From: Perkinsus chesapeaki
Taxonomy: Eukaryota > Perkinsozoa > Perkinsida > Perkinsidae
Length of the DNA: 53,637 nucleotides
Assembly: GCA_013115145.1 (NCBI GenBank)
Contig: JAAPAO010000200.1
Coordinates: 1-53,637 of the forward strand
Direction: 5' to 3'
A program made the translations under genes and the position numbers. How positions within the stretch are numbered: position 1 is the stretch's first letter; each line of letters begins with the position of its first letter. Below, one piece after another: positions 18,547 to 41,571 of this stretch. The notes beneath the pieces are model-generated. The model did not search any database. It was not told the origin of the DNA and saw only the letters and a list, made by a program, of their open reading frames with translations.

Positions 18547-21500
18547 GAGCATTATTGGACAGAAGATGTGCTCTACACTCTAGTGTGGGCTGGCCAGGGG
18601 TGGATGTGGAATAGAGATTGGGGTCCGTATGCCTTGGCTGCAATCGACACAGTTGGGGAGGAATCGCCTATAAGGAAGAACGCCGATTGCTATGTTGAGC
18701 TGTCGGAGGAGGAGGCTGGGAATCCTCGGCAGGCTCTGAGCAAGATTCATAGAGTGCTGTCGAGGCACCCATTGGTGGCGGTGCCGTGGCCGGTCTTGGT
18801 CGATCGGTCGTGGAAGCTTGAACCGAAGAAGACCGCGGTGAGTTGCGGAAGGAAGAAGATTTCGTATGAAGAGTTTGTTGGGTACGGAGGGATTGTGCAG
18901 GGTTACTGCCTGGAGCGAGCGGGGCCGGGGGAGCATGTGATGGTGACATTTTCGGACACTCCAGAATCCAGGCTTACCTGGGCCGTTGTGATGTATGCGT
19001 TGTCGGCGTCGGGGGTGCCTTTTTCGATCATGGACCGGAGGACGCTGCCGAACGCGCCTGCCAGGGAGAGGCTTTTGGAGCGCTGGCAGCCGAGGCTTTG
19101 GATCTGCTGTGATCCAGAGGGGCATGGGAAAGGGGAAGGGGGAATGGCGGATATACCGGCACGTGTTAATGTTGAGCTGGACTTGACTGAGAAGACTGTG
19201 GTTGTTGATGGCCAAGCGACACGGGTTCGATTCCCACCGAGGGCACCTGAAATTCTGGCCACTGCCGAGTCGGTTTGCTTTGTGGACTGGACGAGCGGCA
19301 GCACAAGCGGGCTTCCTAAAGGGGTTGAGACTACTCATCGCACTTTGATAAATATGATGCTTTGGGCTTGGGGGGATGAAAAAATGTTTTTCCACGGCGG
19401 AGCGAAGCACGAAGTTGTCGCTGCAAACCTGTTCCTGTTGTGGTACTGGTGGCAGCCTATCTGTGTGGGAGCGTCGGCGGTGTTGGTTGAAGATAAAGAG
19501 CTTTCGGACTTGGTGAGAGTTTCAAGCTGAGGGGGGGAGATGCGTTTTGGTCAGGAAGTACACATTGCTCTGCTTGATGATGAAAAGGTGTCCATTGTTG
19601 ATTGCATAACCCCTTCGTTGTTGGGAGCTATGGTGGATTATGCCGCCGCAGGAGAGGTAGGCAGGGGTCGGTGTGGTTTTCCCAGTGGATTTAATGTGCT
19701 CTATCAAAATATGTACTACACTTCTCTGCCTCGAGTTAGAAATCTCCATGCCACTTGGAGAGCGAAGTCTCCAGGGGTCAGGGTAGGTAGTAAAAAGTTT
19801 ACGACGTTGGGCTTTTCGAAAATAAATAGTCCTTTACTTAACTGTATAACTGTTATATCGCTGTCCCCGTATTGTGTCGGGTTCTCTCAGACGGAGAAGT
19901 CGCTTCCGAGGACAATGGTGGTGAGTGGAGAGCCTTTATCGGAGCAGGTAAGGCCGGAGGATGCCTATGTGCTATCATAGCTCGCAACAGGTATGTCGGA
20001 AGTTCCTCAAGAGCCAACCGAAAGGTGCTAGACTTGTCAATCTGTTCTCAACCACGGAGACCGGTGATGCCGCCTACTGTCCGATTACGGAGGAGCAGCT
20101 GCCGTTGTGGACGGGCATGGTGACCTTCGCTCCGATAGGGACGCCTATATGGAACGTGAAACTGCATATAGAAGATATTAAAGATGGTGAGTGATGGGAA
20201 GGCATGGACAAGATCAGGCGCGGATCTGGTCGCGCTGTAGTACCCCTGTCTGCTGGCTTACATCTGCGTCTGTTGGCGAAGGGGAGACAATTTTGAGAAC
20301 TATCTGGGACGAATCTTTCCGTTTATCAGCACGGGAGAAAGCAACAGAATTCCTCGCTCAGTTGAGGCCGTCATTGTTCAAGGCTCCTCGTTGTTTTCCT
20401 GTGCCAAAGTCTTCTCGGAACTCGCTGTAACTCGTGGTATGGGCTATAGCGCGTTGGTGAGGTTTTCATATTGATGGATGTGTAGATCGGCTCAACTTAA
20501 GGGATAGCCTCAATATATGAGACGGTTTCGGTGTGTACGTCATCCGAGGGTGGCGAAAGCTCCGGTCTATATTTTTTACCAATACTATAAGGAATCTTTG
20601 ATTTCGTCTAGTTCGATGGCTACCCTCATCGATTTCAGATTCGGGTGCTAGTGGAGAAGGAGAGCTCTTTGTTGAGCATGCCGGTGGTATAATGTCTTAT
20701 GTTAATGATGCTGAGCAAACAGCTCGAGGGTTTAGTTCTCATCACGGCTGGCGATCCCGCGATAGGGTTAAGGAAATCCAAGGTGTGGGACTGGTCATTG
20801 TCGGCCGAGCCGACGACAATGTCAAGGTACGGAGGGAATCATTCCGACTTGCTGAGGGCATCTTGGGGTCGAAATTGGTCGTTATTTAAAAACACTGCAG
20901 ATTGCGTCGGCAGTGGTTTGGATGTTGGACTGCTTTGATAGGGCTTAGACAGTCCATCGGTTTGGGCTGAAGCTAATGGCATTGTTTCTCAGATTCGTGG
21001 GTTCAAAGTTGACCTTAGGCTTGTCGAGGCGAGATGCCGTGACTTGTCTGGACTGAGCGAGGTGTGTGTTATGGTCGATGAGGAGGCATTGGTGGTTGCT
21101 TATACCTCGCCGAATGCTGAGGTGAAGCCGAATGAGCTGATAGACTTCTGCTGGAGGGAGGTTCGAGAGGGCAGACTACCGGACAGCCACGTGCCGCAGA
21201 GGGCTCTACTGTGGCAGGGCGGCAGTTTTCCGATGATGAAGACTGGGAAGATTGATAAGACAAAGGTAAAGGAGAAAGTCCAAGCGGTGAGGAGAGGGCC
21301 CTCGAGAGCCAGATCAGGCGATATGGGCTCGGGGAGCCTCATCCAGGCTCGAGTGGCCGCTGTGTGGAGGGACACCTTGGGTTGCGAATGCGACCTTGAC
21401 GGATCTTTCTGGCGAGAGTGCGGTGGGCAGTCTCTGACGGCTATGAGAATCGCTGCGGCTCTGAGGATTCCAGCGAAGCTCATCTTGGATGGGACTTTGG

Positions 21501-24500
21501 ACACCCCACGAGATATAATATATTTCCTCACAAGAAGCCAGCACAGTTCGCCACGTGAAGTTCACGTGGCAAAGGGCGAACGAGGCATGGCCGAGAAGGA
21601 TCACCGGATTGCTGTGATCGGAGCGAGCGGACGGTGGCCTGGCATTGGCCAGACGAGCCTCTCGGCCCTCCTCGAGGCCCTCAGTGGCAAGCTGGTCGAG
21701 TTCAACCCATTCGTGGCTCCTCCAGACGGTCACACTGGAGCAGGTGGGATCGAAAACTTGTCGAAGTTGTGTGATTCTGTTTTTCAGGCAATGTGCCTGG
21801 CGGCTACTATTTGGAATCTGCTTTGGTGTCGGGGTTCGATGAAGCCTTCTGGTCCCAGCGAGGCGTTTCTGATGCTACTCTCATCGATCCTCATCAGCGT
21901 ATCTGGCTCGAGATGGCCTATGAATCTTTGCTCGATGGAGGCTTTGGGCCGGTCATGGAGCGAGGGGAGGCAATCAATTGTGGGGTGAGTCCATTGGGAG
22001 CTGCATAATGCACGCCAATAGAACTTTGTCATTCTCCGCTTGCATCACCCGTGTGAGGGTTGGGCATTTTCAAAACTGTGTCGGCCGTCGAGCTGTTATC
22101 TTTTTGGCATTCTTCATACCTAGAGACGAGTACTAGTGAAACTCTACAGCCCTGTTGAGCTTTGAGACCTCGATACCTTCAAACCTCGCCGATCGACGTG
22201 TGCGGCCGCATGCATGGTCATTTTCCCCATCAGGTATTCGTCTCTGGTGGCTCCTTGCCCCATTATCTCTCCCTTCTCCTCGAGCCAGGCGAGACTTTGC
22301 CGTCCCTCCGCGTGTCTGACCCTGATCGTTACTTCACCCTCGAGATGGGCAATGACAAGGACTACTTGGCAATGCGCACAAGTCACGCCCTCAATCTCAC
22401 TGGCCCGTCCATGTCTATCGGGACGGCGTGCTCGTCAGCTCTGGTTGCGCTCTGTCAAGCTGTCGAGGCGCTTCGAAACGGCACATGCCAGACGGCCTTG
22501 TGCGGAGGGGTGTCGTTGATTCTGCCGCAAAACGAACATGCCAGCCAAGAAGGAATGATCTGGAGCTCAGACGGCAAGTGCAAGCCGTTCACGGATGCCG
22601 CCAGCGGGACGGCGAACTGCAATGGCGGCCATTGCTTTCTCCTCAAACCCTACGAGGACGCCCTGAGGGACGATGACCCGGTCTATTGTTTGATATCGGG
22701 CGTGGGTGTATGTAACGATGGCGCTGGAAAGCCGTTCTCTGCGCCCAGTGTGGCGGGCCATGAGAGAGCGATCCGAGCGGCTCAAGCCGACTGTGATGAT
22801 GACATTTTCGGAAAAGTTGGTATGATCGAAGCACACGCCACCGGCACGTACGTCGGCGATCCTATCGAAGCCGAAGCTCTCACTGGACAGTATCACCGAG
22901 AGAAGGGCAGAGGAGCTATTTCGATCGGGAGCGTCAAAGGCAACGTTGGTCATGCTAATACAGCTGCTGGGGCATTGGGCTTCGCTAAGGCTGCAATGTG
23001 TGTTTATGAAGGTGTCCTGGTCCCATCGGGATCGGCCATGGAGGGTAAGACCGTGGGGGTCCTCAATACCATTTTGTTATTCAGGAAATATCAACCCACT
23101 CCTGGCCTACCGTCTAGAGTCTTCGAATATGAAACTCCAGCGCATCTTTGAGCCATGGACGGAGACTCCTCGAGCGGCAGCCGTCAGCGCCTTGGGCATC
23201 GGTGGTACCAACGCCCACGTTATCATTGAGAGCGGCCCAGCTCTACCCAAAGCCACCGAGACCGACGAGAAGGTCTACTTTCCATTGTCGGCTGACACTA
23301 TGGAGGCTCTTCAAGATGAGGCAAAGGCGCTGGCTAAGTTCCTCGAGGTCTTCACCGGTTCGCCAGCTGACGTTGCCTACACTCTGGCCAGATTCAGGCC
23401 GTCTCTTGGCTACCGTTACGTCGCAGAAACATCTTCTGCTCAGTTGTCTGATATGGACCTCGAGAATGCAGTGAAATGCCTGCCGACGTGCAACTGTGTG
23501 ACGTTAGTCTGTCCTGGTCAAGGTCTGTCGTTGCCGTCACCGGGATCGATCTCAATCGATCCCGCGATCATCTATCTTCTTGGCGAGGATCCCCTCGTCA
23601 CGTACAGTCTTAACCCAAACCCTGTCACACAACAGGTCGCTTTGTTTTCTGTCTCCTATTCGACCTGTTTACGTATCATCAAATTAGTATCGCAGACCAC
23701 GACCGTCCAGATCCTCGGTGCCTCCCTCGGCGAGTGGGTGGCTGCTACAGTGTCCGGGGTCATGCCTCTCGAGGAGGCCCTGGAAGTAGTCAGACTTCGA
23801 GCTTGGCTCATCACCGAGGGGAACACTGGGAAAATGCTCGCTATCACCGGGATGACAACCGAGGAACTCTTGCCTCTGCCCGATGGCATCGAACTGGCCT
23901 GCGTCAATGCAGACAAACGTATAGTGGTTAGTGGCTCTTTGGAAGCCATTGAGAGCTACAAGGCAACCTTGGAAGTCCCCAGCAAGATTCTGGATACTGC
24001 GGGTGCCTTTCATTCGGTCTATGTGGACAAGGCTGTGGGCGTGTTGAAGTCGGAGATGCCCCGGCTGGTGCCTCACCTCAGGCAGCCTTCTCGGTGCCAC
24101 CTTATCAGTACTGCCAGCCTGGAGGGTCCCATTGACTTCACCTCTGTCGACTACTGGTGCACTCAAACCAGGAGAACTGTGATGCTTGCTCGAGCACTCA
24201 AGAAGGCCAGCGCCGGTGGCACGGCTTTCATCGACGTAGGGCCCGGCGCTGGTATGCGGACTTTGATTCGTGAATGCGTCCCTGAGTCGGAGGTTTTGTG
24301 TGCTGCTCGTTACCTAGATAAAAGCGACCAAGCTTTAAAGAGCGCTCTTTGGTCGGCCGGCTTCATTTCGGACCCACCGGTGCCCGAGGGCGATGGCTTC
24401 CACCGGGTTCTGAGTCTGCCTACTAGATCCTGGATCAGGCGGAAATGCTGGCCTCCCGAACACAACAGATCCCTCATGGCCCAAGCCAGCAGCGCGGAGT

Positions 24501-27500
24501 CGGACCTCGCCAACATTACCTACACGGAGGTCTGGCAGGACCTTCCGAAGCTCGACGACGAGGTGGCTTCGGACCGCTTTGCCGGCTTCAGTTTCGGTGG
24601 GGAGGCGCCGGATTATGAGGATGTTGTTTGGTGCAGTGGTGTCAGCGACTTCGATATTGCCGTGAAGTCCTTTGGTCGGTGTGTGCTAGTTGTTGCCCCT
24701 GAAGAGTCCGTTGATCCCGTCGAACTTCTCGGTGATTTTATCACCTTCGTCCAGGAATCTCTTATCCCTATTGGCCGACGGCTCTCTCATATGGACACAT
24801 TACTGATAATCCAAGAAAACCAGTGCACCAGTCCCCTCATTGGGTTCGCTCGATCGCTGCTTTCTGAGCATGGCGGTGACCTAGGCCTCCGGATCCTGCG
24901 TACCCTAAACATGAACCAGTTCAAGCCGTCCGTAAGTCTGCCCAGATTGGCCGAGTTGAGGCTCGCCGACGGCACAGTCAAGTTGCGGCAACTCGTCCGT
25001 AAACCTCTCAAAACTACGACGACCACAAGTGACTTGAAGCATTGCATTCCCGAGGGTATTGTGGTGGTCACTGGTGCCTTCGGAGGTCTCGGCCGTCTCG
25101 TCACGAAGTGGGCTGCGGACAACCTGTCCTGCCGAAGGATCGTGCTAGTCGGTCGTTCCACGCACGGTCAGACGAGCTCATTCGATTCACCTTGTCCAAT
25201 TGACGTCCGACTTGCCGACGTTAGTGACCCTGTGTCCGTGGTTAATGCCCTCACCGAGTACCACGGTCAGGTTTCGGTAGTCCTGCACTGTGCCGGGGTG
25301 GTAGAAGATGCCCTGGTCGAAAATGCTTCGTCGAACTACGAGGATCTTCATCGCTGTTTGGGCGCCAAGGCACTGGGGCCTCCTAATCTGATGGCTGCTC
25401 TCGGCCCCGAGCCTTATTACGTGCTCTTCTCCTCAAGCTCGAGCGCCTTCGGAAGCCCTGGTCAGTCCGTCTATGCCGCGGCCAACTCGGCGACGGACTA
25501 CTTCGCCGACCATTCCGCCAAGAACATATTGGCGGTCCAGTGGGGAGGGTGGTCGAAGTCAATAGAAGGCAGCATGTCCGCCAAGTACAACGTGAACCCT
25601 TCAGCTGGGGAGCGCTTTTTTCAGCCAAACCAAGGTCTCGGAGCTCTCGGCATACTGCTTGCCCAGCTCGCCACACGTGAACTTACCAATCGTAGTGCTA
25701 TCGTGGCTGACATTCCGGATTGGCAGGAGTACCTCTCCGCATCGGGTCTTCCACGAGAAGCTCCTTTGTGGGGCAGGATACTTCCGGCACCTTCTAGATC
25801 CTGGGTACCGACTTTGGGACAGTTGTCCACTGATCCCAAGTACTCTTGGATGCTCGACCACAAGACGGACGACGGCGCGCTAGTGCCAGCTACGGCGATG
25901 GTGCTTTGGTTGCTTAACCATCCCCGTGAGTCATCGGGTGCTCTCGAGAAGGTTGCCTTCCATAAGGTCCTCTGGTTGGATAAAGGTGAAGGTATCGAAG
26001 TTGACAGAGGTGAAGTCCGCAGCGGTCACACTGTCTACGCTTCGGCAGCCTCCAGCGGCCCAGTGGCCCCTGGTCAACCCAACTATATCAAGAGCGTGCT
26101 CTCCAGCGGCCTCTGTCAAGAAGGACCTTGGGAGTCTGTCGAGGTTGGTGACCTGTACAAGAACTACTCGGAGTCTGGTTTCCCGTATGGCCCTTCTTTC
26201 CGCCTCCTCCGCTCCGCCAGGCAGCATGGTGACCTCCTTGTAGCCGCAGTCGCTGATGGAGCCCACCTTGCAGCTGTTATGGACGCTTGCACGCACGCGT
26301 GCGCTCTGCTGGATGAGGCAGCTTTCGGTGGTCTCCCTAGCAGCATCAGCCATGTGCGCCTGGAGCTCGATAGCCCTACCGTAACTGACACTACCGATTG
26401 GACAGTAGTTGTGAAACGGTCACAAGTCAACTCCCTGGCATACAGCTTCGACCTACTGATGCAGCAACCGAGCTCGGGAAGGTGTATAACCTTCGAGGGC
26501 TTCACCATGCAGACCACCACAGCGCCGCCGATGACACTAAATGTCTATCGGGAGGGAGATCCTGTCCCTTTCGCACATGACGATATCAGACGCCGTGTCA
26601 TGGGCTCCTCCTCCTCCGTTATACGTTCGATGGTCGGGCCGATAGATATCCCTAAGCTCCGAGAGCGTCCTCAAGACCTGAGACAGTATGTATTGACCCC
26701 AGCTGGCAACGGCGAGTTGGACGCAACCTTCGCACCTGAGGAAGTTGACGATATCGTGCCGACTGGTGGGAAGGGAGCTCTGACAATCCAGAACTGTCTC
26801 TTTCAGGTTTTATAAAGGTCAACGCTAAGTATTGGGGCATCTCCTTCCTGGACGCTCTGGCCGCCACCGGAGCTATGCCTATGTCATTCTTTGGTGGTGA
26901 ATTTTGTGGCGAGGTCGCTGCGATTGGAGAAGGGTGAGCAGCGGGGTATGTGGGTGAATTCATAGTTCAAAGCTGAGTAAGGCTTAGACGGTTGATGCTA
27001 TGTGTAGCTTTCCAGAACGTTTAATACTTATACTGATACTGTCACCGCATAGGAGTATCAATGGACCTCACTGTGTCTGCATCCCCGAGGCAAATCTTCC
27101 GAAACCCGACTACACTCGAAATAAATGTGCCAAAATTGGCATTCCTGAGATTCCTGGTGAATGCTCATACCGGTCTCAGGGTTGATACCATCAAAGTTGG
27201 TGATATCGTCGGTTGCGTCACCCTTGGTGCCAATGGCCTGCATTCCAGTATGACCCTCCCAGCTCACTACTGTCATAAGGTAAGCTCAAAATCAGAAGAA
27301 GCGATCGATCTCCGGCGCCTCTACTAGGTCCCCGCCGGAATCACCCCATCAGTGGCCGCCGCCCTACCGATGTCGTTGGCCACGGCGATTCTCGGTAGGA
27401 CATGCCTGCTCCGTAGATCTTCATCCTCTCCGCTCTTCAGCTCTCGACCTCCGCGCTGGTCTGGGCCGTGGTCCCTCCAAGACGGTCTTGGTCCATTCGG

Positions 27501-29389
27501 CTGCCGGTGGTGTCGGGCTCTGCTGTGTAGCTCTCCTTCGAATGCGTGGTCATGATATTATTGGAACCTGCAATCTGAGGGATGACAGGAAGGTCGAGAT
27601 GCTCAAGGTTAGTTTCGCGATTCCCATTTCGTTGTTGAAGCTCCCTTTCCAGAGCCTCGGAGTGTCCCGAATCTTCGACAGTCGGAATGTGTCATCTTGG
27701 TACGTGCCAATGATGTCCGGCGAAGCTCCGCGCCCAGAAGCCATCATCGGTGCGCTCGACGGTGATCAGTTTGCTAGGTAAACTGCTGCGTATGTTCCAG
27801 ATGTCCAATATTGTGTGATAGGTCTTTCGAGGTTGTGGCGTCAAATGGCTACATACTAGACCTGGCGAAAAAGGAACAAATGCTGGACCAAGCAACCGTT
27901 CCCCTCAGCCACTTCCTCAGAGGTAGCCTTCCTCCCGGAAGGCATGATGGTCGAGATGATTCCCAACAGGTGTCACTTACAGCGCCTGCCATCTTGACGA
28001 GTTCATGCGCACGGCACCACCGAGCGAAGTCACCGATTTAATGAATAAAGTTTGGGAAACGGCTTCAGCTGTTGGCCAGAGTGCGATGCAATCGATGCCT
28101 GTCTCAGTCTATCCCGGTGAACATCTAAAGCAAGCGCTGGAGGTGCCCCCACATCAGTCTCTCATCTCGGCCACATTCTCGTCTTTCAGGTCCTGACTAC
28201 AGGTCGCAACGTCGGCAAGGTTGTAGTGGAGCTGGAGCCGCCGGAGGGACACGTGGTGTCCAGCGACCTCGTGGTTGATCTTCGCAACAGCTCCGACCAA
28301 GTCCTTCTCGAGGGAGCAGCTCTTGTCGTCAGCACACTTGAATCAACCTTTCTGGCGAAGGCGCCAACAGTTACCGTTCGCGCTGGCCAGAAGCTGCCAA
28401 TAGACCTCCTGAGATCCCTGGTTCACTTACCGGCCCAGGGCCACGCTTATGTTGCTCTCTCCGGTCCACCAGAGCTACCAGCCCTCCCCGTCTGGCATAG
28501 CTGCTGCGAGTCGAGCTCGGCAAGCACCGGTACGTCGAATAAGTTGTCAATCTTGGTAACAGCTGTTCGACAGCGAAGCAGCGCCGCTGCGTTGGATGGC
28601 CTCTCAGACGAAGACCTCGCAAACATGACTTTGGAAGAGCTCGGCTTCGATTCCCTCGCACGCTTGCAGCTCTCATCGCTCATCCGAAAGCTCTCACCGG
28701 GGGGTCGAAGTCTAGTGGGGAGCGAGCTGGTTGGGCATTTGCCGCTCAGTAGCATCGCCTGCACCAAGCCAAAGTCTGCTGGGCGATCCAAGAGTCATCG
28801 ACCACGGTGGCTGGCCCTTCATGGCTTCAGAATGAACGGTGACTTTTTCGCCCAGCAGCTTGCTGGTCTGGCAGACTTCCTCGGTGTCGAATTTGTCTTC
28901 GTCAACGCTCCCCACCAAGCGCATGGTCCAGGATATGGCGAGAAGGGCGGTATAGCTGATGGCTTTGAGTGGTGGTGGAAAGGGGACAGCGCCGACACAA
29001 CCTATGACTCTGGCTGGATCGGCTCTGAAGGCTTGAAGACAAGTCAGGACTTTCTGCGGCAACAACTGGAACGAGTTAAGCCCGAAGGTGTCGTTGGGTT
29101 CTCGCAAGGTGGTGGCATGGCCTACTGGATGCTGTGTAGAGGCCTAGTAAAGAACGGTCTCATTTTCAGCCCAGTAGGCCCCGACACAGACGAGAGCTTG
29201 AGCCCGCAATCCGAGTCTACCGTTGTGGTAGTAAGAAGTACTCAAAAAGATGAAGCCTCGGCAGCCTACTGCCAGAACGTCTTGAAATGTGATTTCCTTG
29301 CCCACGAGGAGGGACATGTCGTACCGAGCTGCGGTAGCGAGAAGTACAAGGAACTTTACGACACGGTGAAAAAGCAGTTGGACTTATAA
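18547..29389 (+). CDS. Hybrid NRPS-PKS megasynthase A-T-KS-AT-KR-DH-ER-ACP-FSH1
   Basis: Seventeen exons join in unbroken phase to 9,009 nt, about 3,002 residues: 18547-19512, 19555-19656, 19891-19947, 19991-20186, 20639-20826, 20993-21743, 21788-21984, 22234-23044, 23085-26765, 26807-26933, 27180-27279, 27328-27394, 27441-27607, 27653-27777, 27822-27922, 27970-28142 and 28190-29389. Approximate residues: A domain 1-600 (WTSGSTSGLPKG 250, NLFSTTETGD 391, KTGKIDK 586); carrier GGQSL 647; KS 708-1120 (GTACSSAL 884, EAHATGT 1017, GNVGHANTAAG 1055); AT with GASLGEW 1301 and GAFHS 1395; psiKR/KR 1560-1960 (VTGAFGGLGR 1751, SVYAAAN 1884); DH (LDHKTDDGALVP 2012, VMDACTHA 2154); ER 2317-2603 (HSAAGGVGL); ACP LGFDSL 2754; serine hydrolase (GFSQGGG 2906, EEGHVVP). 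It should load an acid, extend it with malonyl-type units, reduce, and release hydrolytically. The start codon is unresolved; ATG 18604 is an internal candidate. Confidence 0.88.
28800..29389 (+). other. C-terminal FSH1/LovG-like serine hydrolase domain
   Basis: This domain is part of the megasynthase last exon. It starts with WLALHGFRMNGDFFAQQLAG, has VFVNAPHQAHGPG, the nucleophile elbow VGFSQGGGMAY and the catalytic-His segment AHEEGHVVP. This is the FSH1/OVCA2/LovG pattern rather than the classical PKS type I thioesterase. LovG is a stand-alone hydrolase that releases the product of the fungal PKS LovB. Here such a hydrolase appears fused in cis after the ACP, so product release by hydrolysis is the likely role (inference). 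Confidence 0.8.
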
Positions 29390-31406: not shown

Positions 31407-31921
31407 AGCTGATCAGATCAGCTTTCTGTATAATACAGGCTGTATTTAATACGGTTAAGTGCGGCCGACAGTTTTCGAGTCTGGAGCACTGCGCCGCGCT
31501 TATAAGCCACACACTTTCGTTTAAGAACCCCGGAAAACCCGCCCTCAACCTTCACATGAGGAGGTTAAGCTTCTTAGACTTTGAGTTCCAAGAAGGATGA
31601 ACTTTTGAAACAGGTTAAGGGTTTCTTGGAGGCTCTTGAAAGATTTGAGGAGTAAATTGCGCCTCTTTTAAAAATCCCGCTTTAAAGAGGGGGGCCTTCT
31701 TTGACCTAAAGAAAATGCCCCGACAACCGAACCGAAACTGTTTCGGATTTCGATTTCGGATTACCGACGGTCTTGGTTTCGATCGGTTTCGCTTTCGGCT
31801 GAGTTACACCGGTTTCGACTTTCGTTTCGACTTTCGTTTCGGACTTTCGGCTTCCAGGCTATAGAAATTTTCGCGTGCGCTTCGCGCACGGCTATTTCCG
31901 CTGACGGGTTAGATCCGTGGC

Positions 31922-32830: not shown

Positions 32831-33450
32831 CCAGAAGTGCTTCCAGAATCTGGAAGCAGGCTTCGGTCAAGTATCCCCTCATCTATAAGGCCGCCAAGGC
32901 TGCGAGATTGACCATGCTGAGGACGGGAAACGTGGAGAGCATCGTCTCACCAATCAGATAGCAGTTATCACTAAGACGCACTTTCGTGAAGTGTATTACA
33001 CTTGATCAGAGCTGTTATGACCGTTCGTGGCACGAACGAGCTGCCGTCGCACAGGCTTGTGGAGTGATGAGTCATCACTGATGACCTTGGATTGTACGTA
33101 TTTGTGGTTCTCCAGTGTGCTACAGTGTAGCAAAATTACTTCCATAAGGTGTATAGCTGTTGCAGTCAGCTGTAGCAGCTGCATCTAGCTGCTATCTAAC
33201 TATGGGTGTCTGCACCGTTTCACATTAACCGCGGTATTCGTGTTCTGAACACGTATATGAACACGTGTATGAATTGTAACTTGTACAATTGTAACTCTCA
33301 AGAGGCATGTGATGTCTCTTAGAGTCTATTAATTAGACATTGTCTCATAATGCACGGCCTGAGGCCGTTTCGGTCGCATCGCGACCGAAACCCGGATCGA
33401 AACCGAAATTTCGGATTCGGTCGTTTCGGTTGTCGGGGCATGCTAAAGAA

Positions 33451-34071
33451 GCTGCCGGTTTAAAAAAGTCTTCTTGAGGTTGGTAAGTGGGACTTTTTCA
33501 AAACAGTTGAAGCAAAATCTGGCCGTTTTACCATTAAGAAGCTTACGAAGGCTTCTTTTAAGAGACTTTTGAAATAGGCCTCAGTACAGTATCGGTGCCG
33601 CTGCTGCAGTCAACAAACGCCCCATCATATGGTGGAGCGTCACTACCCCTCGGGCATTGGGCCCCCCTCGCCTTCAAGAAAGCTGCCAATCGCCCAGGGC
33701 CTTCGATCTTTATCATGGAGCAAGGATAGCTTGATCTCTACAGTATGGTACTGCAGAATAAGCAATCAATGGATGAGGGAATTTCGCGTCGAATCTCCCG
33801 CAGACTTCACTGCACGCATGCGCACACGAATACCGATCCTTGGCTTTAGTAAGATCCACATCAAATCTAGCATACAAACTTGGAGTGCCCAACCACTCCC
33901 GATGTTAGACTCGTCATTTGACATCCGTTTGCCTCGCAAGAAGTGCCGGCACGAACTCGAAGTCAGCCTTCCACATGGACTGTGCATGCGTGTGAAGGGT
34001 GTGTTTGCGTGCATGAAGGCCGTCAAAGCTGTGTTCTGTTGCACTCGGGTGATTTATTACCACTATTTCCT
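33451..34071. other. Region upstream of the BT1 transporter
   Basis: 33480-33578 carries a lysine/phenylalanine-rich open stretch (DFFKTVEAKSGRFTIKKL, then TKASFKRLLK and stop) that looks like an eroded coding end. A similar Lys-rich piece lies left of the transposon near 31590-31655. The open frame from 33629 overlaps the transporter start in another frame and has low-complexity content, so I read 33600-34071 as promoter and 5' untranslated sequence. Confidence 0.4.
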
Positions 34072-35808
34072 ATGCCCCCCACCGTACCATCCAGAACATC
34101 GTTGGCCCGTGGCAGCTTCGTGAAAAAGCTTCCCGTTGTCGGAGCCATCTCTGGCCTCTGCAAAGACTTCGGGTGGAAGTTGATTTTCATGCTTCATTTC
34201 ACCAACCATTGGGCGAAAGGCTTCAGCTACATCATGATAGCCTCGACCATTCGATTCTACTTTCGTGCCATGAATGTGCCTGGTCCTGACATCGATCGCT
34301 ATTATTCTGTAATATTCATGCCTTGGGCCATGAAGCCTTGGTTAGGTGTGATCTCTGATTCGGTCCCTATTTTCGGCTATCATAAGTTGCCCTATATGAT
34401 GCTCATCAGCCTTCTTGGCCTTATAGGGACAATCGTGGCCGTCTCATTGAAACTGGTTGAGAGTAACGCCCCCATTGCTACCGTGGGTCTATTCTGTGCA
34501 AATCTTCAAATTATGGGTTATGACCTCTTCGCAGAAGCCGTCTATTCACGTCGTCTGGCGGTCGTTCCAGACTCCGGCCCAAGTCTTGTCAGTTACGTTT
34601 GGGCCGGTAATCAGCTTCTTGGTCTATTCGCTACACTGCTGGTTGGTTTCATCGTTGAACACGCTGATGGTGTTTGGGGCCTCGGTGGTGCGCAGTGGGC
34701 AATTCTTACTACTATCTTCACATCATCAACTGTTATTATCCCCGCATGGATGAACTTTTTCGAGGAACCCAAGGTGACCAAAGAAGAGGCAAGAGCGCAC
34801 CGCAAGCATTTATGGGGAAGCCAGAAAGAAGTTGCGATTCTGTCTGTCGTTGTTGGTCTTACAGCTGTCGGATATTCTGTCATCAACCTAGTTGCCAGAT
34901 CCAATACTGTAGCCTTCGTGACAGCTCTTGTGAGTGTCGCTCTACTCACTGGATTCGCTTTCTCTGTGATGCGACCTGTGATTGGTAAACTAATGTTGTT
35001 CAATGCAATATCACAAGTCACTATCATATCAGTTGGTGGCCCGTCGATCTATTTTTTCACTGATGACGAGCAACAGTATCCCGCCGGGCCTCACTTTTCT
35101 GACATTTTCTATGGTTCAGTTCTCGGCACGGTAGGGCAACTCTGCTCCGTTCTTGCTATTTTCGCCTTTGGCAAGTTTATGAAGAAGTGGAAGTACCGAA
35201 CAGTATACCTTGTCATGACGATTATGCTCGTTGTCATGCAGTCTGGTGATCCCATCATCTTTTCACGTCTTAACGTTCGTATTGGTATTCCAGACCATGT
35301 ATTTGCAGTGGGAAGCACTGCTCTAGTAGCCGCAGTGTCCATGATACAGTTCATGCCTGGTTTCCTGATTCTCTCTCACTTATGTCCTAAAAATATGGAG
35401 GCTACGATGTTCGCTTTGCTGGCATCTTTGTCAAACTACAGCCAAAACGTCACCCCTCCAATCGCTGGTTACATAAGTCAATTGCTTGGCGTCACACCGA
35501 GAGGGCTGCCTGGTGTTGATGAGTCGGAGACCTTTACTAATCTTTGGATCGTCTCATTGATATTGATGGGCCTTAGTATAACATCGATCTTCTTCTTATG
35601 GCTCATTCCTAATGCCAGAATGAATGAGCGCATTCTGATTGATGGTGATGACACATCAGCTACGGCTGGGTCTTTGGTGGAAAGGTGGTTCAAAGGAAAG
35701 AAAACTGGTGACACCAAGAGCGAGGTTAACTATGAAGTGAGCTCTGAGAAACCATTGGATCCTCCAAGTGATAAGGAGGATAAGAACAATACCGAACTCA
35801 TTCGTTAG
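34072..35808 (+). CDS. BT1-family (folate-biopterin type) membrane transporter
   Basis: This is a 578-residue single-exon protein. The ATG at 34072 (MPPTVPSRTSLARGSF) is the first in the frame; the frame is open further upstream but without ATG. Around twelve hydrophobic segments are spread along it. Family landmarks are visible: the first loop ATIRFYFRAMNVPGPDI-like (TIRFYFRAMNVPGPDIDRYY), MPWAMKPWLGVISDSVPIFGY, QIMGYDLFAEAVYSRRLA and NYSQNVTPPIAGYISQLLGV. BT1 proteins import folates, biopterin or related compounds in kinetoplastids, apicomplexans, plastids and cyanobacteria. They are numerous in alveolates, and substrates cannot be read from sequence. The C-terminal tail (about 70 residues) is charged and probably cytosolic. 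It is intronless, unlike most neighbours. Confidence 0.88.
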   Translation: MPPTVPSRTSLARGSFVKKLPVVGAISGLCKDFGWKLIFMLHFTNHWAKGFSYIMIASTIRFYFRAMNVPGPDIDRYYSVIFMPWAMKPWLGVISDSVPIFGYHKLPYMMLISLLGLIGTIVAVSLKLVESNAPIATVGLFCANLQIMGYDLFAEAVYSRRLAVVPDSGPSLVSYVWAGNQLLGLFATLLVGFIVEHADGVWGLGGAQWAILTTIFTSSTVIIPAWMNFFEEPKVTKEEARAHRKHLWGSQKEVAILSVVVGLTAVGYSVINLVARSNTVAFVTALVSVALLTGFAFSVMRPVIGKLMLFNAISQVTIISVGGPSIYFFTDDEQQYPAGPHFSDIFYGSVLGTVGQLCSVLAIFAFGKFMKKWKYRTVYLVMTIMLVVMQSGDPIIFSRLNVRIGIPDHVFAVGSTALVAAVSMIQFMPGFLILSHLCPKNMEATMFALLASLSNYSQNVTPPIAGYISQLLGVTPRGLPGVDESETFTNLWIVSLILMGLSITSIFFLWLIPNARMNERILIDGDDTSATAGSLVERWFKGKKTGDTKSEVNYEVSSEKPLDPPSDKEDKNNTELIR

Positions 35809-39279: not shown

Positions 39280-41212
39280 CTAAGACGAAGAGCGAGTAAA
39301 CACAAAGGTAGTGTAGAAGTTGAAGACAGGCTCCTCTTCTGGCGACAATACAACGCCTGAATGCTTCCTTCGGAAAGTCCTAACCACGTCGCACTTCGTC
39401 TCGTAGTGGTCCAGAAACGCGCCGAAATTTGCGTGCAGCACGCACTTGAGATTTGATCCACGTGCTGCCGCGTCGAAGGACTTGAAGGGAACCATGTACT
39501 CAGCTTGGTCGTCAATGCTTTCGATAAGCCAAAACCGATATACCACACCCCATATAGAAGAACACATCTTATGATCGATGACCGCCGCCGCAGATTCACC
39601 TTGAGGAACTGCTGTACGCGTGCGGCAGAGTTTAGCCAACTCTTCCTTCTCGAAGGTCACACTATAGTGGTCATTGCCGAACTTCGCAGAACCGTCCGAA
39701 GATATCGTTGTATGCTTAAGCCTGTTAGATATGGTCTCGCTGCAGGGAATGGTACCGATGAAATTGCCACCAGGTTTTAGGACAGCTGAAACTCTGGCTA
39801 ATAGCTGCTGCGCGGCTTCCTCGCTGGACATAAGATAGTGCATAGCCAGTTGCATGGAGACAGTATCGAAAACTCTAGTGTCACCAGCAGCCGCAGCACA
39901 GCAAACTCCTTCTTGCTCGGCGATTAAGATTGCCTGAAAAAGTACAAATGAGTGATAGGTAAATTCCAGCTGCATGGAAAAGCGACACGGCGAGCCAATG
40001 CGACGCGACGTGGATCTGGAACGAGACCTGTGCGACTTCACCGACCTTCTTAAACGTTGTCTCGTCTTCCAGGTTGCCTTGGATGAATACTGCACGGTAC
40101 TGCAATCTCTGCTCGGATTCACCGTATCGGCGTTTGGCTTCTTCAATGGCCTCGGAAGATATATCAATACCGATGTACAACCTGCCAAAAGAGAATGCGA
40201 CGCCGAACGATCGCATAGCTAAATCAAGTTCTGGAACGTTTTCTCACCTCGGTTTGCACGCACTGTATTTCCACAAATCCTGCCCGTGTCCGCAGGCGAG
40301 GTCCAGGACCACCGGGCCCGACGGGGGTACGAACTTCTCTATCAGCACACGCTTCACCAAGTTGTTGTACTTCCTCAAGGCCCCAACTTCAGATTCATTT
40401 TGGGACACCTGGTTCCTGGTTTTACGGTCGTAGTGGTCCTGCACGTTGAAACTGGCCGCGGCTCCAGCGGCGGTGAAGAGGTTTTCGTAGCACAGAGCTG
40501 GCGCGGGCATGCCGTCGGCCATCGTAGCGAGCGACTCGGCATTACGGAGCAAATCTCGGACGGCCACGCTGAGTCCATGTGAATGGTGCCCAATCATTCT
40601 GGTATATTGGTTTCTCAGCAGGGAGGGATTCACATCAACCCTGAGGCCGCGCCCTTGGACCACGACGCGCCACCAGAGATCAGGGCCCTTGTTGAAACGG
40701 AAGACCGTGCAGGGCCCCTCGGGACCTTGGTAGTCTATCTGGGGAATGCAGACGTCCACTCGTAGATGAATGCTGCTTTCGGGCCGATATATCAGGTACC
40801 GCTCGACGATCTCCTCACCACCAGTGGGTGCCACAGTCGCCTCCGAAACGTCAACACTGGTCCAACCAGCTTCGTGTGCTTTGAGGGATTGCACTGCCTT
40901 CGAGGGTTCCTGTAGAGCTGCGTCATCCTTAGTATCGAAGGAGCCGCTAGGATCGATGAAGCAACAACCAGTCGCTCGGGATATGGGTAGACCGACAGAC
41001 TCACCGCTCATCTTGTCAGTGAACGTAACCAAGGATACCGATAACCGAACCTCCTCTTTCGGACGAGACGCCAGAGCCTTTATAAGACCGCCTTCGAGCC
41101 GCCGGAAGATGGGCATGTAGGAGGACCCTGAGAGCTCGCTCGGGGCGCACATTCGCAACTGTCTCGGAATTCCGTCTTTGGGCGGTTGCACTGCCGGGGT
41201 GGCGCTTGTCAT
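39280..41212 (-). CDS. mRNA cap guanine-N7 methyltransferase (RNMT/ABD1 type)
   Basis: Three exons, 41212-40248, 40181-40028 and 39933-39280, join in phase to 590 residues. The C-terminal 340 residues fit the cap-0 enzyme that methylates GpppN caps with S-adenosylmethionine: VQDHYDRKTRNQV, LRKYNNLVKRVLIEKF, SAM-binding VLDLACGHGQDLWKY, LYIGIDISSEAIEEAKRRY, FDTVSMQLAMHYLMSS, LKPGGNFIGTIP, FGNDHYSVTF and the late Phe-rich LHANFGAFLDHYE. The N-terminal roughly 250 residues are longer than in yeast ABD1 and carry strand-like text (KEEVRLSVSLVTFTD, ERYLIYRPESSIHLRVD, CTVFRFNKGPDLWWRVVVQG) that I cannot place. A degenerate triphosphatase-like barrel is possible but unproven. Start at 41212 is the first ATG of the exon. 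Confidence 0.88.
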
Positions 41213-41571
41213 CGTATAGGGGCAGAAACAAGAAGCTGAGAGAGTGGTGAAAGATACTCCAGAGAACTCAAGACGAAATTCAGAGGTGTCATGTCACAAC
41301 CATTTGAACAAATTATAGTCCTCCAAGCTGAACGGCACTCGCCACTGTGGAGGTAGATGCTTAGGTATGATAGGCCGCCTTAAAGCATGATGATAAGGTT
41401 CCTTAAGAGACGGAACAACTCACATTTGTCTTGGCGGAACCTGGGGCACGTGCATGTTGTCAGAGTGAATGTCAAGACTGGTGTCGAGCTTCTTTCCGTC
41501 AACGTAGTGAGCAGCGATATAAAGTCTGTAACTGCGCGGAGGGTACAAAGATCCCAGCTCAGACGATTCCC

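What the first reader, a model, noticed from the sequence alone, without database searches (positions are those of the whole stretch)
18547..29389. Hybrid A-T-KS-AT-KR-DH-ER-ACP-hydrolase megasynthase in a protist genome
Seventeen exons join without a phase break into a single polypeptide of about 3,000 residues. An NRPS-type loading A-T pair without condensation domain feeds one reducing PKS module, with a hydrolase fused at the end. The lack of a C domain means the A domain loads a starter acid directly, as in BurA-type hybrids reported from Burkholderia and invoked for dinoflagellates (from memory). This domain string as a whole is not one I know as described.
Basis: partly seen in the sequence, partly recalled or inferred. 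Interest (0 to 1): 0.92.

Follow-up and report, generated by a model that had tools for sequence, protein, structure and literature searches.

The report
Oyster-parasite hybrid polyketide megasynthase gene
An oyster parasite of the genus Perkinsus carries one intact giant gene for a chain-building enzyme whose part order was already reported from dinoflagellates; in this assembly it is the only enzyme of its class found, which makes it a candidate answer to how the parasite starts its fatty chains.

Summary
Seventeen exons (18604-29389, +) join through 16 GT-AG introns into one open frame of 2,983 residues. Profile searches and motifs give A-T-KS-AT-KR-DH-ER-T-FSH1 hydrolase. The host is a Perkinsus, probably P. 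marinus or very near it. The domain string is not new: A-PP-KS-(AT)-KR-DH-ER-PP-TE is published from Gambierdiscus, Karenia and Ostreopsis, as a clade apart from the BurA-like one (PMC7159223). It is probably the 'ZmaK-like' hybrid reported as absent from syndinians and likely horizontally acquired. A Perkinsus copy with short native introns would move its origin back. What surprised me: it holds the only ketosynthase and only acyltransferase found in the 35.4 Mb assembly, in a genus reported to make fatty acids from acetate yet to lack FASII. Most likely it loads a carboxylic acid without an alpha-amino group, adds malonyl, reduces fully and hydrolyses. Its being the parasite's fatty acid synthase is the bold, unexcluded reading. 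No expression data and no full dinoflagellate sequence could be compared.

The parts
18604..29389 (+). Gene model: 17 exons (18604-19512, 19555-19656, 19891-19947, 19991-20186, 20639-20826, 20993-21743, 21788-21984, 22234-23044, 23085-26765, 26807-26933, 27180-27279, 27328-27394, 27441-27607, 27653-27777, 27822-27922, 27970-28142, 28190-29389)
   Evidence: all 16 introns GT-AG, 11 of 16 are 40-48 nt; 2,983 codons open
18769..21300 (+). Adenylation domain (exons 1-6, limits approximate); A10 Lys kept; Asp235 missing; one-residue insertion in the P-loop (TSGSTSGLPKG)
   Evidence: PF00501 E 1.3e-28; best solved relatives are NRPS A domains; alignment
21329..21535 (+). First carrier (T) domain, limits approximate, Ser codon at 21431-21433 in CGGQSL
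   Evidence: alignment through NRPS T domains; no Pfam hit
21602..23300 (+). Ketosynthase; Cys codon 22429-22431 (TACSSALVA), His in EAHATGT and KGNVGH
   Evidence: PF00109 E 1.6e-34, PF02801 E 5.5e-26; bacterial modular PKS are the best solved relatives
23471..24373 (+). Acyltransferase (limits approximate); GASLG and GAFHS, predicted malonyl-specific
   Evidence: PF00698 E 5.5e-16; motif rule as given in PMC7159223
24497..25054 (+). Probable structural half of the ketoreductase
   Evidence: position between AT and KR; label from recall, no profile hit
25055..25555 (+). Ketoreductase, TGxxGGLG, Ser/Tyr/Asn present (motifs recalled); lies BEFORE DH and ER
   Evidence: PF08659 E 9.7e-28
25838..26527 (+). 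Dehydratase; His in LDHKTDDGALVP and Asp in AVMDACTH present (motifs recalled)
   Evidence: PF14765 E 1.7e-5, PF21089 E 0.002 (below cut-off)
26681..28237 (+). Enoyl reductase across exons 9-17
   Evidence: PF08240 and PF00107, both E 1.1e-5, the second below cut-off
28583..28690 (+). Second carrier (T/ACP) domain, ELGFDSL
   Evidence: PF00550, below cut-off, E 0.023
28796..29389 (+). FSH1-type serine hydrolase; GFSQG and late His (EEGHVVP) present
   Evidence: PF03959 E 3e-15, first half of the profile

Best explanation
It is the Perkinsus copy of the dinoflagellate hybrid family A-T-KS-AT-KR-DH-ER-T-TE (the second, non-BurA NRPS/PKS clade, probably the one called ZmaK-like). The A domain activates a carboxylic acid that lacks an alpha-amino group and loads it on T1. 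KS condenses it with malonyl loaded by the built-in AT on T2. KR, DH and ER reduce the beta carbon fully, and the FSH1 hydrolase frees an acid lengthened by two carbons, or by more if the module iterates. Shown: gene structure, domain order, expected catalytic residues present. Inferred: starter class, malonyl choice, number of rounds, product, single transcript, kinship with the dinoflagellate genes.
For: Domain order and motifs. The same unusual order, A-PP start, KR before DH-ER and a hydrolase at the end, in published dinoflagellate contigs. In the 80 bacterial PKS loci at hand, 0 modules had KR before DH/ER and 39 (in 35 loci) had it after. KS motif TACSS and NVGH as in that clade, against NSACSS and NIAH of the BurA clade. 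T1 motif shares 7 of 12 residues with ZmaK_1 and 2 of 12 with BurA_1 (my count). Asp235 absent. GAFH motif for malonyl. A PPTase candidate exists. Short introns in phase argue against a bacterial contaminant.
Against: No full dinoflagellate sequence could be compared, so kinship rests on architecture and short motifs. T2 motif is nearer BurA_2 (7 of 12) than ZmaK_2 (5 of 12), and ACSSALVA has the Ala of the BurA clade. HATGT fits neither clade as printed. PMC7159223 is not consistent with itself: its table writes the string without AT, one sentence without KR, and it says that one contig lacks the A domain that its table gives it. That the published TE is an FSH1 is only implied by figure legends. 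The bacterial order count uses this protein's own domains as queries, misses weak DH and ER, and includes overlapping loci of one contig. The A domain is divergent (P-loop insertion), and an inactive A was not excluded.
Confidence: 0.66

Rival explanations
1. Iterative type I fatty acid synthase of Perkinsus: the A-T pair primes with a short acid and the fully reducing module cycles until the hydrolase frees a fatty acid, replacing the lost FASII.
For: Only KS and only AT found in the assembly; no FabH-type match; full KR-DH-ER-hydrolase set; P. marinus makes fatty acids from acetate, and Perkinsus growth is inhibited by cerulenin and triclosan (PMC2868825 passages); FASII not retained in Perkinsus (PMC7789003 passage); FAE1-type synthases present for later elongation.
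Against: KS scores far better with bacterial modular PKS (308.8 bits) than with animal FAS (157.8 bits). The same architecture is published from core dinoflagellates, which keep FASII (recall). FAE1-type enzymes might supply chains. Triclosan targets FabI, not this ER fold (recall). The assembly may be incomplete and the search is exon by exon.
Confidence: 0.2
2. BurA-like zwitterion synthase: the A domain loads DMSP, a betaine or another cationic acid.
For: Asp235 missing and an acidic residue at the 330-equivalent; BurA-A and ATRR-A also lack Asp235 and carry an acidic pocket residue (PMC7496086 passages).
Against: BurA product gonyol is only ketoreduced, while this enzyme has DH and ER; the BurA-like clade has another order; which residue takes place 235 depends on the gap.
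Confidence: 0.07
3. Two or more separate transcripts, or an unexpressed gene.
For: No expression data here; introns of 452, 249, 246 and 234 nt could hide other signals.
Against: Every junction keeps phase and the A, KS and ER domains run on across junctions; no stop in 2,983 codons.
Confidence: 0.05

Closest known systems
Dinoflagellate hybrid A-PP-KS-(AT)-KR-DH-ER-PP-TE (Gambierdiscus polynesiensis TB92contig47444, G. australes 10913, Karenia brevis Kbcontig10632, Ostreopsis), PMC7159223 section 18
   Same: Domain order, cis-AT clade, KR before DH-ER, terminal hydrolase, KS motif TACSS...N(V)GH
   Different: Here from Perkinsus, with 16 introns, and the only KS found in the genome; KS ACSSALVA instead of ACSSSLVA, HATGT instead of HGGTG
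ZmaK-like transcript of Amphidinium carterae, PMC9027781 and PMC9500876 (passages)
   Same: A domain, T1 of GG(H/Q)SL type; FSH1 hydrolases are drawn on multi-domain transcripts of the same figure
   Different: Full domain string not seen, only legends; T2 motif differs; reported absent from syndinians
BurA of Burkholderia and BurA-like dinoflagellate genes
   Same: A-T loading, Asp235 missing, malonyl extender, hybrid KS
   Different: BurA-like order TE-A-PP-KS-AT-TE-KR-PP, no DH or ER, T1 motif ASGAES, KS motif NSACSS...NIAH
Apicomplexan and chromerid type I FAS/PKS
   Same: Acid-activating loading domain plus carrier before a fully reducing module (recall)
   Different: Multi-module with DH-ER-KR order and an acyl-ligase loader (recall); here the loader is NRPS-like

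Membership tests
Dinoflagellate A-PP-KS-AT-KR-DH-ER-PP-TE hybrids | Domain order with KR before DH-ER and terminal TE | tested here: met
   (T1) against the table
Dinoflagellate A-PP-KS-AT-KR-DH-ER-PP-TE hybrids | KS motifs V(A/Q)TACSSSLVA, HGGTG, N(L/V)GH | tested here: inconclusive
   TACSS and NVGH agree, ACSSALVA and HATGT do not
Dinoflagellate A-PP-KS-AT-KR-DH-ER-PP-TE hybrids | KS and A domains fall in the clade | not testable with these tools
   protein database switched off; no dinoflagellate sequences held
BurA-type | KR as the only reducing domain (no DH or ER) | tested here: not met
   DH and ER present
BurA-type | A domain without Asp235 | tested here: met
   Leu or Asn at that place
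BurA-type | KS motifs VNSACSSALVA, HCGTG and NIAH | tested here: not met
   IGTACSSALVA, HATGT and NVGH
Type I fatty acid synthase | KS nearest to FAS | tested here: not met
   bacterial modular PKS score higher
Type I fatty acid synthase | Iterative synthesis of long acids from acetate | not testable with these tools
   needs enzymology

The most novel reading that the evidence does not exclude
Perkinsus lost FASII and every other ketosynthase of the PF00109 type and now starts its fatty chains with this single hybrid megasynthase, which was inherited from the common ancestor of perkinsids and dinoflagellates. It would be a fatty acid synthase primed by an NRPS-type adenylation domain and the target behind cerulenin sensitivity.
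Probability: 0.18. Interest if true: 0.82.

Novelty: new member of a known kind. Interest (0 to 1): 0.52.

Why it matters
The papers seen here treat this hybrid as common in core dinoflagellates, absent from basal syndinians and probably gained from bacteria. A copy with native introns in Perkinsus puts its origin before the perkinsid-dinoflagellate split, or implies loss in syndinians or a second transfer. As the only KS and AT found in the assembly, in a genus reported to make fatty acids without FASII, it also turns an old puzzle about Perkinsus lipids into a one-gene test.

Tried and rejected
Protein database search: switched off, so no homologue list. A genome-contig scan with the whole KS matched 12 stretches, none a relative. 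A viral-contig scan matched 2 stretches, none a relative. AlphaFold2 of exon 17 alone failed (mean pLDDT 36.7), so no fold search was made and the second job was not used. The same exon had no solved relative by sequence. NCBIfam gave only matches below their cut-offs on the four ORFs given. Bacterial contamination: rejected for introns and a spliced-leader genome. Biosynthetic gene cluster: not seen, but only 14 flanking ORFs were scanned, 6 with hits (DTW, BT1, DnaJ, two pieces of a cap methyltransferase, ATP synthase C) and 8 without; genes in small exons could be missed. Second copy: exon 9 as a protein matches only itself. Loci L093-L097 were fetched but not analysed further. BurA itself was not fetched, since it belongs to a virulence pathway of listed germs.
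Full report
Observation. Reading the window and its frames and splicing by GT-AG boundaries gives 17 exons, 18604-29389 on the + strand, 8,952 nt, 2,983 residues and one stop at the end. All 16 introns are GT-AG; 11 of 16 are 40-48 nt, the rest 166, 234, 246, 249 and 452 nt. Exon GC is 0.561, intron GC 0.482. Introns 2 and 13 could be kept without breaking the frame; I removed them because the A and ER domains align without them.

Domains. Pfam gives AMP-binding, ketoacyl-synt N and C, Acyl_transf_1, KR, PS-DH, ADH_N and ADH_zinc_N, PP-binding (weak) and FSH1, in that order (the protein given in two pieces; exon-wise). ADH_zinc_N, PP-binding and PKS_DH_N stay below their cut-offs. T1 has no Pfam hit but lies in the NRPS alignments. 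Motifs read from the sequence, their meaning from recall: KS Cys-His-His complete; AT GASLG (His of GHS replaced, Ser kept) with GAFHS; KR TG..GGLG with S, Y, N; DH H and D; FSH1 GFSQG and a late His; A10 Lys. No C domain was hit. KR stands before DH and ER; in the 80 bacterial loci at hand 0 modules had that order and 39, in 35 loci, the usual one. That count used this protein's own domains as tblastn queries, so DH and ER are under-called, and some loci are overlapping stretches of one contig.

Host. G000 has 35,393,606 bases in 884 contigs. Of three such places looked at, one runs on into two of the three published P. marinus primer sequences tried, the other two into none (primers). The paper reports different SL introns in P. 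chesapeaki. A FAE1-type synthase is followed by two desaturases on one strand of contig C86, as reported for the P. marinus arachidonic acid operon (PMC2868825 passage). So the host is Perkinsus, probably P. marinus or near it; the species name is inference.

Only ketosynthase. PF00109 finds this locus alone at E <= 0.001 (1 of 5 candidates). PF02801 finds this locus and one chance match at E 0.92 with a stop. PF00698 finds this locus alone. PF08545 finds nothing. Exon 9 as a protein finds itself alone. The control genomes rang in 14 of 14 for PF00109 and 10 of 14 for PF02801 and PF00698. As yardsticks for completeness, Cpn60_TCP1 hits cluster in nine multi-hit places, the number expected for eight CCT subunits and one Cpn60 (recall), with two more single hits; proteasome hits lie on 11 contigs where 14 genes are expected (recall). 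A caution: the search with PF00501 (16 matches, 14 of 23 candidates scored) did not list this locus although it bears such a domain, so absence in these searches is not proof. One PPTase-like match exists, E 1.5e-5.

Literature. PMC7159223 (section 18 part 1 read; passages) describes two dinoflagellate NRPS/PKS clades: BurA-like TE-A-PP-KS-AT-TE-KR-PP, and A-PP-KS-(AT)-KR-DH-ER-PP-TE in Gambierdiscus, Karenia and Ostreopsis; its table and text differ on AT, KR and one A domain. PMC9027781 and PMC9500876 (passages) name BurA-like and ZmaK-like transcripts in Amphidinium, mention FSH1 hydrolases in the legend of the multi-domain transcripts, and say that both genes are not found in syndinians and are likely transferred. 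That ZmaK-like and the second clade are the same is my inference. PMC6722697 passages speak of the BurA-like hybrids. Absence in Perkinsus: I searched the held library for Perkinsus with polyketide synthase (22 papers, 20 listed), with fatty acid synthase (17 listed of 17), with ketosynthase terms (134 papers held two of three terms; the 20 listed hold no Perkinsus) and with NRPS terms (6,350 papers; 20 listed, one of them naming Perkinsus). I saw listings, and passages of a few, and no report of this gene; the last two lists are capped, subscription papers and a 2021 dinoflagellate domain survey are not held, so this is no proof of novelty.

Mechanism. A domain: nearest solved relatives are NRPS proteins, best E 3.6e-33. 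The Asp235 position is Leu in my reading of the phmmer alignment and Asn in MAFFT; either way the alpha-amino anchor is missing, as in BurA-A (PMC7496086 passages). An Asp sits at the 330-equivalent (numbering from recall). The P-loop has one extra residue, which could lower or change activity. KS: the best solved relatives are bacterial PKS chains (308.8 bits) over animal FAS (157.8 bits). AT: GAFH suggests malonyl (rule as). Carrier motifs, 12 residues each, my count: T1 has 7 matches with ZmaK_1 and 2 with BurA_1; T2 has 5 with ZmaK_2 and 7 with BurA_2, so T2 does not speak for ZmaK. Chain: starter acid, one malonyl, full reduction, hydrolysis; iteration open.

Fatty acid reading. P. marinus makes fatty acids from acetate, and Perkinsus is inhibited by cerulenin and triclosan, once read as a sign of FASII (PMC2868825 passages); FASII is reported as not retained (PMC7789003 passage). 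With one KS in sight, this enzyme is a candidate source of short or medium acids that FAE1-type synthases could lengthen. Against it: its KS is PKS-like and its architecture is shared with dinoflagellates, which keep FASII (recall).

Verdict. Observation confirmed; interpretation partly supported; new member of a known kind, in a lineage where I found no report of it, with an unexpected genomic setting.

Noticed in passing
G000 contig C86, 24957-29082 (-): FAE1-type ketoacyl-CoA synthase followed by two fatty acid desaturases on one strand, as in the reported P. marinus arachidonic acid operon.
   Followed up: partly
window 31715-31735 and 33421-33441: 21-nt inverted repeat, 95% complementary, 1,685 nt apart, about 2.3 kb downstream of the gene: looks like the ends of a DNA transposon-like element.
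   Followed up: no
window 33922-35808 (+): BT1-family transporter in one long ORF.
   Followed up: no
window 39280-41293 (-): mRNA cap guanine-N7 methyltransferase in two ORF pieces.
   Followed up: no
L002 and L003, position 1501: Spliced-leader copies followed by TTCTT instead of a GT donor, possibly leader-tagged retrocopies rather than SL RNA genes.
   Followed up: no
window 19657-19890: Intron 2 is 234 nt, a multiple of three and free of stops, so a retained form would lengthen the A domain by 78 residues.
   Followed up: partly
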